Source: Dysgonamonadaceae bacterium (GTDB taxonomy: Bacteria > Bacteroidota > Bacteroidia > Bacteroidales > Azobacteroidaceae). Taken from it: a stretch of DNA of 19,339 nucleotides. The notes under the pieces were generated by a model that ran no database searches, was not told the DNA's origin, and saw only the letters and a list, made by a program, of their open reading frames with translations. A program made the position numbers and the translations under genes. The number at the start of each line of letters is the position of its first letter. Within the stretch, counting starts at the first letter, position 1. This document shows positions 6,643-19,339 of the stretch, piece after piece. The stretch spans positions 1 through 19,339 of the forward strand of contig JAIRSN010000106.1 of the NCBI GenBank assembly GCA_031255425.1, written 5' to 3'.

Positions 6643-7656
6643 CTATTTAGTTTTGTTTTTAGAAAAAACGGTAATGATTGAACCTTTGATGCGAAAATCC
6701 AACTTCTTTGTTTTCTTCAGTACATTCAGAATGTCCACTACATTTTCTTCGTTCCTAAATTCGCAGGTAAACCTTTCTTGTGCGAGCTTAGCGTCTGCAA
6801 TGGTGATCTCTACGGCAAAACTGCGTTCGAGCGCGCGGACAATGTCCTGCAACTGTCGCTTATGGAAACGGAATATTCCGTTTTTCCAATCGGTAGCTTC
6901 CTGTCCCTGCACGGTCGAAATCATCGGTTTTTTATCTTTCTCATACGTCAGCTGTTCGCCCGGATTCAGCAAGAAATCCCGGTCGAACGGCCGGTTATGT
7001 ATATTGGCAGCAATCAATCCCTCGTATAAAGTGGCTTGTATGCTGTTTTCTTCTTCAAACGCTTTCAGGTTGAATTTGGTTCCGAGAACTTTAACGTCGA
7101 GCAAAGGGGTGGACACGATAAACGGGCGCCGGTCGTTCTTGATCACTTCAAAATAAGCCTCTCCCGTCAGTTGCACCCGGCGCACCGCCGATGCTTCGGT
7201 GTGGTAGGTCAGCGACGAACAGGAATTGATCCACACTTTTGTTCCGTCGGGCAGGGTCACCTGCGAGCGCTCGCCTTTTCCGGCGTCAATCGTGATAAGG
7301 CAGGGGGCATCCGGCGGTTTCGTTCCGGTAAAAAGTCCCGTTTTGTATACTGCAAAGGGGAGCGACACGGCGACGGCGAGAATCGCGGCGTACCTGAGGA
7401 TTCCCGTCAGAAGCGCTCTTTTCTTTTTCCTTTCCTCCCCGGACGGTTGGCGGATCTGTTTTTCCAGCTTTTTCCATTCCCGGTCTGTGTCCGCCAGGCG
7501 TTGCCATTCTTCTATCCGGTCAGCCCAGTACAATTCCTCCAGGCCGAAAAGAAAGTCCCGGTTGGCGTTATCGCTTTCGAGCCACTCCACCAGCAACGCG
7601 CTTTCTTCTTCCGTAAGCTGCCGTATCAAATATTTAACGATTAATTCTGTTTGCAT
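6643..7656 (-). CDS. FecR-type anti-sigma factor
   Basis: Inner-membrane anti-sigma regulator of the FecR family, 337 residues from the chosen start. Residues 1-80 are the cytoplasmic anti-sigma part. A single transmembrane segment lies at about 83-104. The periplasmic FecR domain follows, with LPDGTKVWINSCSSLTY at 135-151 and RRVQLTGEAYFEV at 159-171. The C-terminal domain, expected to contact the transporter STN domain, runs to the end (DILNVLKKTKKLDFRIKG). The frame stays open upstream to 7788, but the preceding 44 residues do not look like a FecR N-terminus, whereas MQTELIVKYLIRQLTEEE does. The usual partner, an ECF sigma gene, is missing: upstream lies only a repeat-filled region. It precedes susC by 137 bases on the same strand. 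Confidence 0.9.
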   Translation of the reverse strand: MQTELIVKYLIRQLTEEESALLVEWLESDNANRDFLFGLEELYWADRIEEWQRLADTDREWKKLEKQIRQPSGEERKKKRALLTGILRYAAILAVAVSLPFAVYKTGLFTGTKPPDAPCLITIDAGKGERSQVTLPDGTKVWINSCSSLTYHTEASAVRRVQLTGEAYFEVIKNDRRPFIVSTPLLDVKVLGTKFNLKAFEEENSIQATLYEGLIAANIHNRPFDRDFLLNPGEQLTYEKDKKPMISTVQGQEATDWKNGIFRFHKRQLQDIVRALERSFAVEITIADAKLAQERFTCEFRNEENVVDILNVLKKTKKLDFRIKGSIITVFSKNKTK

Positions 7657-7821
7657 GCCTGCTGTATGCCCGCGGATATTTTTCGCGTATATATAAAGAC
7701 GATGCAAGGAATGAAAACTACTCCCGAAAAAGGATGTGTTATAAAACATGTTTGGCCGGGGGTTTCTTTTTGCCTTATTGCTTCCCAAAAAAAATAAAAG
7801 CGGCTGCGCCGCCAGGCGCCG

Positions 7822-8072
7822 TTTCAGGGCAACCCGGCAAACGTCCCAAAGAAGTTTTTGTGCTTTCCATGTATCCCGGAAAGTCTTCCAGGGGAATTTT
7901 TACGCTTTCAGGGTATCCCGGAAAGTGTTCCAAAGAAGTTTTCACGCTATCCTGGTTACTCTGCAACCGTTCCGGGGAAGTTTTGGCGATCGCCTGGTCA
8001 CCCTGCGATGGCGCTCACATCGAATTTTCGTGGGTAGTTGGCTGTAAAATGTCCACAGGAATTTTTTTTCGC
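7822..8072 (+). repeat. 42-bp GC-rich tandem repeat, left arm of composite element
   Basis: Five 42-bp units start at 7822, 7864, 7906, 7948 and 7990, with a decayed sixth up to 8072. The units drift but share the pattern TTTCC-n-TATCCCGGAAA followed by CTTCC-n-GGAA and a T-run ending in RCGC. Each can form small hairpins (TTTCC with GGAAA; CTTCC with GGAAG). Positions 7864-7889 match the reverse complement of 8437-8462 over 26 bases without mismatch, which ties this arm to the right arm. Confidence 0.9.
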
Positions 8073-8317
8073 TTTTTAAATATTTAAAAAACGTCAAATG
8101 AATTATTTTTCACTTTTTAAACGTTTAGAAAACGTCAAATGAATTATTTTTCACTTTTTAAATGTTTAGAAAACATCAAATAAATTATTTTTCACTTTTT
8201 AAATGTTTAGAAAACGTCAAATGAATTATTTTTAGCTTTTTAAATATTTAGAAAATATATTATAAATAAATTTTAACTTTTTAAATGTTTAAAAAATGTT
8301 CTGAAAATCCTGGATTA
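8072..8317 (+). repeat. 41-bp AT-rich hairpin repeats, centre of composite element
   Basis: Five exact-length 41-bp units start at 8072, 8113, 8154, 8195 and 8236, with a decaying sixth from 8277. Each unit starts with an imperfect palindrome (CTTTTTAAA, two bases, TTTAGAAAA) followed by a 21-base spacer close to CGTCAAATGAATTATTTTTCA. The same unit length and hairpin-plus-spacer design recur at 19154-19339. Confidence 0.92.
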
Positions 8318-8336
8318 TTTCTAAAATGAACTGACG

Positions 8337-8630
8337 CGCTTCCGAGGAGGCGGGCACGTTAGCAGGGTTACCTGGAAAGTGCAAAAACTTCTCCGGAAGG
8401 TTTTCCGGGATACCCTGAAAGCGCAAAAACTTCCCAGGAAGACTTTCCGGGATACATGGAAAGCGCAAAAATTTATCCGGGAGGTTTTCCGGAATACATG
8501 GAAAGCACAAAAATTTCTCCAGGAGTTTTTCCGGAATACATGGAAAGCGCAAAAACTTCCCGGAGACGTTTGCAGGGTGACCCGGCGAACGCCCGGAGGA
8601 AGTTGTGGCGTTGGCAGGGACCTCTGCTGT
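8337..8630 (-). repeat. 42-bp GC-rich tandem repeat, right arm in inverted orientation
   Basis: Six 42-bp units start at 8337, 8379, 8421, 8463, 8505 and 8547, with a decayed unit at 8589-8630. Their reverse complement is the same family as the left arm. Read from the outside inwards, the unit types come in the same order in both arms: a type with CCC-GGCAAACG, then TTTCCATGTAT units, then TTTCAGGGTATCCC, then a CCTGGT-type unit. The right arm has two extra units of the TTTCCATGTAT type. Confidence 0.9.
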
Positions 8631-8738
8631 CTCTGTTTCTTTTCATATATATAATGAATAAAGGGAGATTTATTTCTAATGGTAATGAGGTCGGGATAGG
8701 AGGATAATGTCTATGTCCCAATCTATTGCTTCATAAAA

Positions 8739-18901: not shown

Positions 18902-18945
18902 AGAAGGTATGTTACTGTTTTTTCTTTCAGGCTGACACTCCGCCC

Positions 18946-19112
18946 TTTCCGGTCCTCCCACCTCCCTTGCCAAGAACCCCGGCACCCTTTCCGGCTCTCC
19001 TGCCTTACTTGCCCGGAACCCCGGCGCCCTTTCCTGCCCCCCGGCAAACGCCTTTTTCTCTTCCGCGCTGTATTTGGGTCACCCTTCTCCCGTCTCAGTT
19101 TTCGAAAGAACC
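18946..19112 (+). repeat. 42-bp GC-rich tandem repeat, second locus
   Basis: Three clear 42-bp units start at 18946, 18988 and 19030, each beginning TTTCC; a fourth, diverged one starts at 19072. The third unit shares the CCCGGCAAACG core with the first unit of the array at 7822. Unit length and order (GC-rich 42-mers first, AT-rich 41-mers next) repeat the design of the first locus. The sequence between the ispE hairpin and 18946 shows nothing certain. Confidence 0.8.
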
Positions 19113-19339
19113 AGTTTACTGTTTTATATTTGGAAAATAGACCGTTTTTTTAGACTGTTAAAATTTTAGACGGCTCAAAAAGATAGTTTTTTTTCCGTCT
19201 AAACATTTAGACGGCTCGAAAAGATAGTTTATTTCCCGTCTAAACATTTAGACGGCTCGAAAAGATAGTTTTTTTTCCGTCTAAACATTTAGACGGCTCG
19301 AAAAGATAGTTTTTTTTCCGTCTAAACATTTAGACGGCT
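19113..19339 (+). repeat. 41-bp hairpin tandem repeat, second locus, running off the window
   Basis: Exact 41-bp units start at 19195, 19236 and 19277, and a fifth is cut at the window end from 19318. A diverged unit lies at 19154-19194 and probably another at 19113-19153. Each unit holds a perfect palindrome, CCGTCTAAA-CA-TTTAGACGG, followed by the 21-base spacer CTCGAAAAGATAGTTTTTTTT. Unit length, hairpin position and spacer length equal those at 8072-8276, though the sequence has diverged. Confidence 0.93.

What the first reader, a model, noticed from the sequence alone, without database searches (positions are those of the whole stretch)
7822..8630. Composite mirror-image element: inverted 42-bp arrays around a 41-bp hairpin array
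Directly visible: five to six 42-bp units (7822-8072), five to six 41-bp AT-rich units (8072-8317), then six to seven 42-bp units in inverted orientation (8337-8630). Positions 7864-7889 and 8437-8462 are perfect inverted copies over 26 bases. Unit subtypes occur in the same order in both arms when read from the outside inwards, so the arms arose as one large palindrome and not as independent arrays. No open frame, transposase or CRISPR-like unique spacer explains it. It sits at the 3' end of the truA-DUF3256 unit and upstream of fecR. Possible roles (inference): bidirectional transcription barrier, nucleoid or condensin-like protein loading site, non-autonomous mobile element, or a long structured RNA.
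Basis: partly seen in the sequence, partly recalled or inferred. Interest (0 to 1): 0.82.

Follow-up and report, generated by a model that had tools for sequence, protein, structure and literature searches.

The report
Palindrome arrays paired with DUF6261 genes
The odd mirror-image DNA stretch is one copy of a widespread repeat whose palindromes recur every 41 to 43 letters, and arrays of that kind sit directly in front of many genes of an uncharacterised protein family (DUF6261) in related bacteria, pointing to an undescribed gene-plus-DNA-array system.

Summary
In detail: 42-bp units (left arm, minus strand), 41-bp AT-rich units, then 42-bp units inverted. The arms share a 27-bp perfect inverted copy and are each other's best match, but by small margins (114/140 against 109/140 for the next locus), so one large palindrome is only partly supported.

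The element belongs to a dispersed family: 143 unit matches on 42 contigs of the same genome. Units are a palindrome of about 20 bp plus a linker. Palindromes differ between loci but keep pairing; spacing stays at 41-42 bp despite many substitutions.

Unexpected result: in 26 Bacteroidales genomes, 64 of 86 assessable DUF6261 (PF19775) genes have such an array within 600 bp upstream, against 5 of 138 control ORFs (Fisher p about 1e-30). With no period filter, the best upstream array of each gene, where strong (63 genes), is 41, 42, 43, 82 or 84 bp. Array sequences are mostly unrelated, even between similar proteins. A second, Pfam-less family has 20-21-bp arrays.

Best reading: a geometry-coded array, palindromes every four helical turns, is the cis half of a DUF6261 module; the window holds dispersed copies. 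Binding by DUF6261 is inferred.

The parts
7822..8019 (-). left arm: 42-bp units (palindrome + linker A), read on the minus strand, degenerate towards the centre
   Evidence: R1 model hits on the - strand within 7818-7959
8059..8296 (.). central 41-bp AT-rich array, 5.8 copies, with palindromes of the TTTTTAAA..TTTA.AAAA type; sister array at G000:C232 (91% over 95 bp)
8353..8592 (+). right arm: 42-bp units of the same family in inverted orientation
   Evidence: R1 hits on the + strand within 8367-8592
7863..7889 (-). 27-bp perfect inverted copy, left member
8437..8463 (+). 27-bp perfect inverted copy, right member
8573..8650 (.). right-hand end of the element with its boundary module, 94% like G000:C257; part of it (8577-8611) 91% like C70
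   Evidence: query 774-851 and 778-812
7799..7813 (-). terminator-like hairpin followed by a T-rich run next to the left arm; similar hairpins stand next to several other arrays of the genome (seen by eye)
19165..19339 (+). second array of the window: 41 bp, 4.3 copies, palindrome CCGTCTAAACATTTAGACGG; a match of 84% to contig C61 falls on the array directly upstream of the DUF6261 gene there; the contig ends inside it
18943..19039 (.). short 42-bp tandem repeat (2.3 copies) beside the second array, within the stretch matched by G000:C169
8739..9350 (-). DUF3256 gene whose 3' end faces the element (neighbour)
   Evidence: PF11644 E 1.2e-40
6643..7656 (-). fecR gene whose 5' end faces the element (neighbour)
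   Evidence: PF04773 and PF16344

Best explanation
The element is a dispersed copy, rearranged here into a mirror image, of a palindromic tandem array that elsewhere is the cis-acting half of a two-part module whose other half is a DUF6261 protein gene. What counts in the array is geometry more than sequence: each unit is 41-43 bp, four turns of the DNA helix, and carries one or two palindromes, so that the dyads lie on one face of the DNA. Shown: the family, the strict period, covarying palindromes, more constant linkers within a genome, the upstream position at most DUF6261 genes in several families of the order, and the near lack of sequence similarity among those arrays. Inferred: a dimeric or oligomeric protein, most simply DUF6261 itself, assembles on the regularly spaced dyads, recognising spacing or shape (dyads on one face, or extruded hairpins) more than sequence, and so controls its own promoter. 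Also inferred: copies of array, in some cases with the leader but without the gene, have spread through intergenic DNA; the one in this window is such a copy.
For: Family: 143 unit matches on 42 contigs (150 of 1877 candidates scored). Covariation: 88.6% of stem cells paired vs 69.5% shuffled; 74 cells changed on both sides vs 26; slid controls 32-59%. Two-speed units: 19 contiguous units of L181 keep the linker at 0.889 but the palindrome at 0.607 identity. Length: 171 of 178 spacings are 41 or 42; I count 13 spacing changes against 1077 substitutions there, vs 57 gap openings per 241 mismatches in other dispersed repeats of the genome. DUF6261: 64 of 86 assessable genes have the array upstream vs 5 of 138 control ORFs; in the first set 20 of 24 upstream vs 3 of 29 downstream. 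With no period filter the best upstream array per gene, at score 100 or more, is 41, 42, 43, 82 or 84 bp in 63 of 63. Perfect stem of 7 or more in 31 of 61 units vs 2.7% of shuffles. L120, L122 and L123 share flanks and linkers but have different palindromes; L122 and L123 lie beside DUF6261 by Pfam. A leader like theirs stands before arrays L119, L124, L170, L171, whose contigs have no DUF6261 match. All five genomes with unit matches (of 58) have DUF6261, which is in 25 of 146 relatives. Blind stretches: 4 arrays of 40-44 bp in 229 kb of DUF6261 genomes, 2 in 608 kb of the others. Named case: Prevotella nigrescens NZ_CP082843.1, K8O81_RS10460.
Against: No binding or expression data. Array sequence hardly follows the protein: of 4 pairs with protein identity 0.60-0.69 three have array identity 0.43-0.48 and one 0.61; shuffles average 0.42, maximum 0.585; over 1830 pairs the correlation is weak (rho 0.10, p 2e-5). 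That speaks against a sequence-reading protein. The DUF6261 core is acidic (median pI 5.8), unusual for a DNA binder. 22 of 86 assessable DUF6261 genes have no array by this test, 5 of 6 in G131. Of 44 arrays tabulated in the own genome only L122, L123, L134 and, by its gene start, L120 are beside DUF6261. Eight DUF6261-bearing genomes among those gave no unit match. Linker-A arrays fold better on one strand (35 of 51, p 0.011), as an RNA reading would predict, although the broad set does not.
Confidence: 0.55

Rival explanations
1. Selfish intergenic minisatellite or MITE of the BrickBuilt type, with no functional tie to DUF6261; palindromes are kept by hairpin-templated repair and the period by the copying process.
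For: Dispersed, intergenic, no preference for gene ends; array ends and flanking modules shared among some loci; L120, L122 and L123 keep flanks while palindromes change en bloc.
Against: The position in front of DUF6261 genes in 22 of 26 genomes and the same period with mostly unrelated sequence are not expected of a selfish repeat. No Y1_Tnp (RAYT-type) match in G000, G008, G009, G016, though 5 in G023.
Confidence: 0.2
2. RNA-level element: the array is transcribed, and its hairpins act as an attenuator, stabiliser or small RNA.
For: Linker-A-type arrays fold better on the A strand than on its complement in 35 of 51 cases; only 36-44 bp lie between array and ATG in eleven DUF6261 genes, little room for a promoter.
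Against: 64 DUF6261-linked arrays: 38 fold better antisense, 26 sense, p 0.17. An exact 41-43 nt period is not needed for RNA hairpins. Arrays flank 5' and 3' gene ends equally. No Rfam match in the window.
Confidence: 0.15
3. Plain cis-regulation: a variable-number repeat that tunes DUF6261 expression through some other DNA-binding protein; DUF6261 is only the regulated gene.
For: Constant upstream position, median 90 bp from the ATG; the acidic DUF6261 core and mostly unrelated array sequences fit a partner other than DUF6261.
Against: Does not explain the many arrays of the own genome that have no DUF6261 gene beside them, nor a second gene family with a different, 21-bp period.
Confidence: 0.25
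4. Assembly artefact or chance.
For: The genome is a fragmented MAG (274 contigs, 77% complete).
Against: Same architecture in many genomes, in long contigs, and in a complete Prevotella nigrescens replicon.
Confidence: 0.01

Closest known systems
F-plasmid centromere parS_F (sopC) with SopB/ParB
   Same: Twelve 43-bp tandem repeats that contain 16-bp inverted repeats bound by ParB (PMC6238139, passages seen): nearly the same unit length and dyad layout.
   Different: DUF6261 has no ParB match in Pfam; here there are up to 52 gene matches per genome, and the arrays have mostly unrelated sequences.
BrickBuilt MITE of Porphyromonas gingivalis
   Same: Intergenic tandem array with leader and tail, dispersed, in the same bacterial order (PMC4596501, abstract and sections 5 and 8 read).
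   Different: 23-nt units of one sequence family, 19 copies in ATCC 33277; the parts that I read name no partner gene family and no locus-specific palindromes.
CGTC-tagged REPs
   Same: Stems of 8-9 bp that begin with A-T pairs, loops of 4-5 (PMC3733652, abstract, passages and section 6 read); many linkers here end in GACG, the reverse complement of CGTC, at the stem.
   Different: They are mostly head-head dimers, head-tail arrangement negligible; ours are head-tail arrays. Their consensus figure was not available to me, so the orientation of the tag could not be compared.
ParMRC partition (ParR-parC) and iteron origins
   Same: Paralogous DNA-binding proteins with their own repeat sites (ParR specificity in Clostridium plasmids: PMC9426499, listing and start of abstract only; iterons recalled).
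   Different: The DUF6261 proteins scanned match no ParR or Rep family; their neighbouring genes were not scanned.

Membership tests
BrickBuilt MITE | 23-nt tandem unit of the described sequence | tested here: not met
   units of 41-43 bp
BrickBuilt MITE | intergenic location | tested here: met
   42 of 44 arrays overlap no predicted gene by more than 30 bp
BrickBuilt MITE | leader and tail with small terminal inverted repeats | tested here: inconclusive
   shared leader or tail in subsets only; TIR-like ends seen by eye at L126
REP/RAYT (REPtron) | Y1_Tnp-type transposase in the genome | tested here: not met
   0 in G000, G008, G009, G016; 5 in G023; G000 is 77% complete
CGTC-tagged REP | stem of 8-9 bp with A-T in the first two pairs | tested here: met
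   outer two pairs are U-A in 22 of 23 rows of the first helix; linker-A units only
CGTC-tagged REP | head-head dimers predominate, head-tail negligible | tested here: not met
   arrays are head-to-tail
ParABS centromere | ParB-family protein beside the array | tested here: not met
   no ParB domain reported for 8 DUF6261 proteins with the limit at E 10
ParABS centromere | tandem units of about 43 bp with an inverted repeat | tested here: met
   compared with PMC6238139
CRISPR | constant repeats separated by unique spacers | tested here: not met
   both halves of the unit recur within an array
CRISPR | cas genes | not tested
   no search made
iteron-type plasmid origin | replication initiator gene downstream of the repeats | tested here: not met
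   no Rep family for the DUF6261 proteins scanned in Pfam and NCBIfam

The most novel reading that the evidence does not exclude
Bacteroidales chromosomes carry at least two families of small proteins, without detectable homology to each other, whose genes are mostly preceded by an array of palindromes of their own. The code of these arrays is a ruler, not a sequence: DUF6261 goes with four helical turns (41-43 bp), a second Pfam-less family with two turns (20-21 bp). Array sequence turns over almost completely between paralogues while period and dyads persist, so recognition is by geometry. The window's mirror element is a free-standing, rearranged copy of such an array.
Probability: 0.4. Interest if true: 0.95.

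Novelty: categorically new. Interest (0 to 1): 0.85.

Why it matters
A protein family of unknown function, with up to 52 matches per genome, gains a strong genomic clue: a DNA array of fixed period in front of the gene. If DUF6261, or another protein, assembles on these arrays by spacing rather than by sequence, that would be an unusual recognition principle, testable in a cultured species such as Prevotella nigrescens. It may explain why this draft genome is broken at such repeats, and it gives a rule (41-43 and 20-21 bp) for annotating intergenic minisatellites in this order. The literature searches made here listed no paper whose title or opening abstract reports the association: (listings only, apart from the papers named in Closest known systems and PMC4060949 and PMC5771137, of which I saw passages). 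'DUF6261' occurs in one paper of the library (listing seen only).

Tried and rejected
Coding arrays: rejected, because 41- and 42-bp arrays coexist. Gene-end or terminator function: rejected by 29 vs 29 flanks. RAYT mobilisation: not supported in the own genome. Viral carriage: five single-protein scans of viral contigs found no relative of DUF6261; they reach close relatives only. In named phage records five matched; of the two fetched one has a whole related frame, the other aligned only at the C-terminus. Neither shows a tandem array of period 12 or more. Family X: no match in named phages or plasmids.

A general excess of 21-23-bp arrays in Bacteroidales was at first taken as a mere trend; may explain part of it. 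'The protein reads the palindrome sequence' was my first mechanism and is weakened. The strand asymmetry of linker-A arrays looked like a sign of RNA until the broad set failed to show it. The two-speed numbers for the own genome (linker 0.817 and palindrome 0.786 within loci, 0.665 and 0.455 between) are biased, because units were picked by linker similarity, so I rely on the contiguous array L181. DUF6261 and family X show no detectable homology (probability 5.9).

Selection notes: 93 of 197 DUF6261 matches (145 plus 52 in G061) were examined: the loci returned by the tool plus 40 that I chose from the list. 7 of 93 had under 150 bp upstream and were dropped before the count. Control ORFs are mechanical frames of at least 200 aa and include some that are not genes. 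The 64 arrays use TRF score 50 or more; some have only 1.9-2.7 copies. Start codons are the ATG nearest the expected protein start, so distances are approximate. In one search the six genomes without DUF6261 were chosen partly because they lacked a unit match; one search is the unselected survey. For family X, 30 of 82 matches were examined and 4 dropped for short upstream DNA.

Full report
What is there. Window 7822-8630 holds 42-bp units on the minus strand, about six 41-bp AT-rich units, and 42-bp units on the plus strand. The two arms are each other's best match in windows of 63 to 140 nt, but by small margins: 59/63 vs 56/63 and 74/84 vs 70/84, 104/126 vs 101/126 and 114/140 vs 109/140. 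Over the whole ungapped overlap of 170 nt they are 72% identical, as left arm vs L109. I accept an inverted duplication of two to three units; one palindrome over the whole arms is not shown. Of the 42 contigs in the match list, only this one has matches on both strands, so the mirror layout is particular to this locus.

The family. A search of the own genome with the element gave 50 matches (40 of 88 candidates scored). I fetched 27 matching stretches; 26 of them, all but L125, hold tandem arrays of period 41-43. Each unit is a palindrome of about 20 bp centred in one half and a linker of about 22 bp in the other half. Two linkers occur in the 42-bp arrays: A (about AAAAACTTCTCCGGGACG) and an AT-rich B (about AAAATCTGTTAATTTCTTAC). 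Where both stand in one locus they carry similar palindromes (L114, L120, L122, L123; by eye). In an alignment of 23 unit pairs, 88.6% of stem cells pair, against 69.5% after shuffling; 74 cells are changed on both sides against 26; slid controls reach 32-59%. These sequences are related, so the shuffle count is not a probability. A covariance model built from them finds 143 matches on 42 contigs (150 of 1877 candidates scored) and, among 58 genomes with stricter filters, matches in four further members of the same genus. One member of that genus has a contig of 774,998 bases, the length of the Candidatus Azobacteroides pseudotrichonymphae chromosome AP017913.1, so I take the genus to include that species (inference).

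Two speeds and one length. In the relative G023, 19 contiguous units of L181 keep the linker at 0.889 identity while the palindrome falls to 0.607, in about four discrete types. Spacing is nearly fixed: 171 of 178 spacings are 41 or 42 bp. By my reading there are 13 spacing changes against 1077 substitutions between neighbouring units; other dispersed repeats of this genome show 57 gap openings per 241 mismatches. That control is small (35 alignments). Arrays lie between genes regardless of direction: 29 flanking 3' ends, 29 5' ends; 4 convergent, 4 divergent, 6 tandem among those with both neighbours on the stretch.

The partner. Loci L120, L122 and L123 share their flanks and linkers but not their palindromes. 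The gene beside L122 and L123 is DUF6261, PF19775; for L120 only the shared start region is on the contig. DUF6261 was found in six of twelve genomes tried first: G000, G008, G009, G016, G023 and the genome of L029 with 52 matches; the six without it had been chosen partly because they lacked a unit match. The unselected scan finds it in 25 of 146 relatives and in none of 14 control genomes. All five genomes with unit matches have it; eight further genomes of the set have it without a unit match. I examined the upstream DNA of 93 of 197 genes, from 26 genomes. Of 86 with at least 150 bp upstream, 64 have a tandem array of 41-43 bp (40-44 allowed) within 600 bp, median 90 bp from the start codon; 5 of 138 control ORFs do (Fisher p about 1e-30). 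Such arrays occur in 22 of the 26 genomes, which span the window's own family and nine other families of the order as labelled by the tool. In the first set of loci 20 of 24 had it upstream and 3 of 29 downstream. With no period filter, the best array upstream of each gene, at score 100 or more (63 genes), has period 41, 42, 43, 82 or 84. Misses: 22 of 86, for example 5 of 6 in G131. In blind stretches, arrays of 40-44 bp (or double) number 4 in 229 kb of DUF6261 genomes and 2 in 608 kb of the others. A named, complete example is Prevotella nigrescens FDAARGOS_1486, NZ_CP082843.1, K8O81_RS10460, with a 41-bp palindromic array at its annotated start.

What is constant and what is not. Among 61 such units, 31 have a perfect stem of 7 bp or more, against 2.7% of shuffles. 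The unit sequences are otherwise nearly unrelated: best-rotation identity 0.454 within and 0.431 between genomes, 0.421 for shuffles; the closest pair reaches 0.74. The four protein pairs of 60-69% identity have arrays at 0.43, 0.44, 0.48 and 0.61; over 1830 pairs array identity rises only slightly with protein identity (rho 0.10, p 2e-5). Folding shows no strand preference in 64 arrays (38 antisense, 26 sense, p 0.17), unlike the linker-A-type arrays (35 of 51 on the A strand, p 0.011). Palindromes at a fixed spacing of four helical turns, with nearly free sequence, point to DNA geometry rather than to RNA or to a sequence code. The helical interpretation of 41-43 bp rests on the textbook 10.5 bp per turn.

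A second family. The ORF behind one control array (L241:13347-14012) has no Pfam family and has 28 matches in G008, 23 in G033, 12 in G023, 11 in G009, 5 in G068, 2 in G000, 1 in G016 and none in six other genomes. I examined 30 of these 82. Of 26 assessable copies, 25 have an upstream array with period 20-22 or a multiple of 21; control 10 of 138. It shows no detectable homology to DUF6261.

Mechanism. I hold it most likely that the array is a platform of regularly spaced dyads for an oligomeric protein, most simply DUF6261, beside its promoter, and that copies without the gene have spread, some with the leader (L119, L124, L170, L171). In working principle this is like the F-plasmid centromere, twelve 43-bp repeats with inverted repeats bound by ParB (PMC6238139), but DUF6261 is not a ParB by Pfam. 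The acidic DUF6261 core (median pI 5.8) and the turnover of sequence are real objections; a third protein could bind the arrays instead. No function is known from the libraries tried (Pfam, NCBIfam, PHROGs, PADLOC; the few other matches are weak), and no related sequence is solved (best E 0.14).

The window. Its second array (19165-19339) lies in a stretch 84% like contig C61, where the matching array stands directly upstream of a DUF6261 gene; the contig ends inside the array, so a DUF6261 gene may follow. The main element resembles the arrays at L120 and L122 at 0.63-0.67 over about 150-190 nt, less closely than L108 and L109. Both window arrays thus belong to families that accompany DUF6261 elsewhere in the same genome.

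Noticed in passing
L241:13347-14012 and L340-L369: A second multi-copy protein family without Pfam match has 20-21-bp (or multiple) palindromic arrays upstream in 25 of 26 assessable copies.
   Followed up: partly
window 19165-19339: 41-bp array that runs off the contig; its relative on C61 stands before a DUF6261 gene.
   Followed up: partly
L121:8245-8600: Inverted repeat of about 48 bp (AAAACCTCATTTTCACC...CCTCAGTAGC), seen by eye; the same module flanks arrays in L114, L117, L119, L111: possibly a separate MITE.
   Followed up: no
L126:640-1175: Array flanked by inverted GTCTCGTACG ... AGTGGGC / GCCCACT ... CGTACGAGAC, possible terminal inverted repeats of a mobile unit.
   Followed up: no
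L109, L112, L118, L121 and others: Other dispersed intergenic modules: AAAATATAAAAGCGGCTGCGCCGCC (terminator-like), GGAGTACGGTGTATCTGCTTGGCT, and CCCCGGGTGCAAACCCGGGG blocks, often nested with the arrays (by eye).
   Followed up: no
L123:2893-3117, also L245, L249, L273 (DUF6261 proteins): Some DUF6261 proteins end in an Ig-like looking segment (YTGxPV...GTAxxxIxGxGxYxG), others in an acidic DDDRP tail; the names of these segments are my own reading.
   Followed up: no
L029 and other truA loci (L009-L088): Tandem arrays of 21-23 bp are common among non-coding minisatellites of Bacteroidales truA neighbourhoods (23 of 57); L029 has 42- and 41-bp arrays near truA with no DUF6261 gene found in the locus.
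   Followed up: partly
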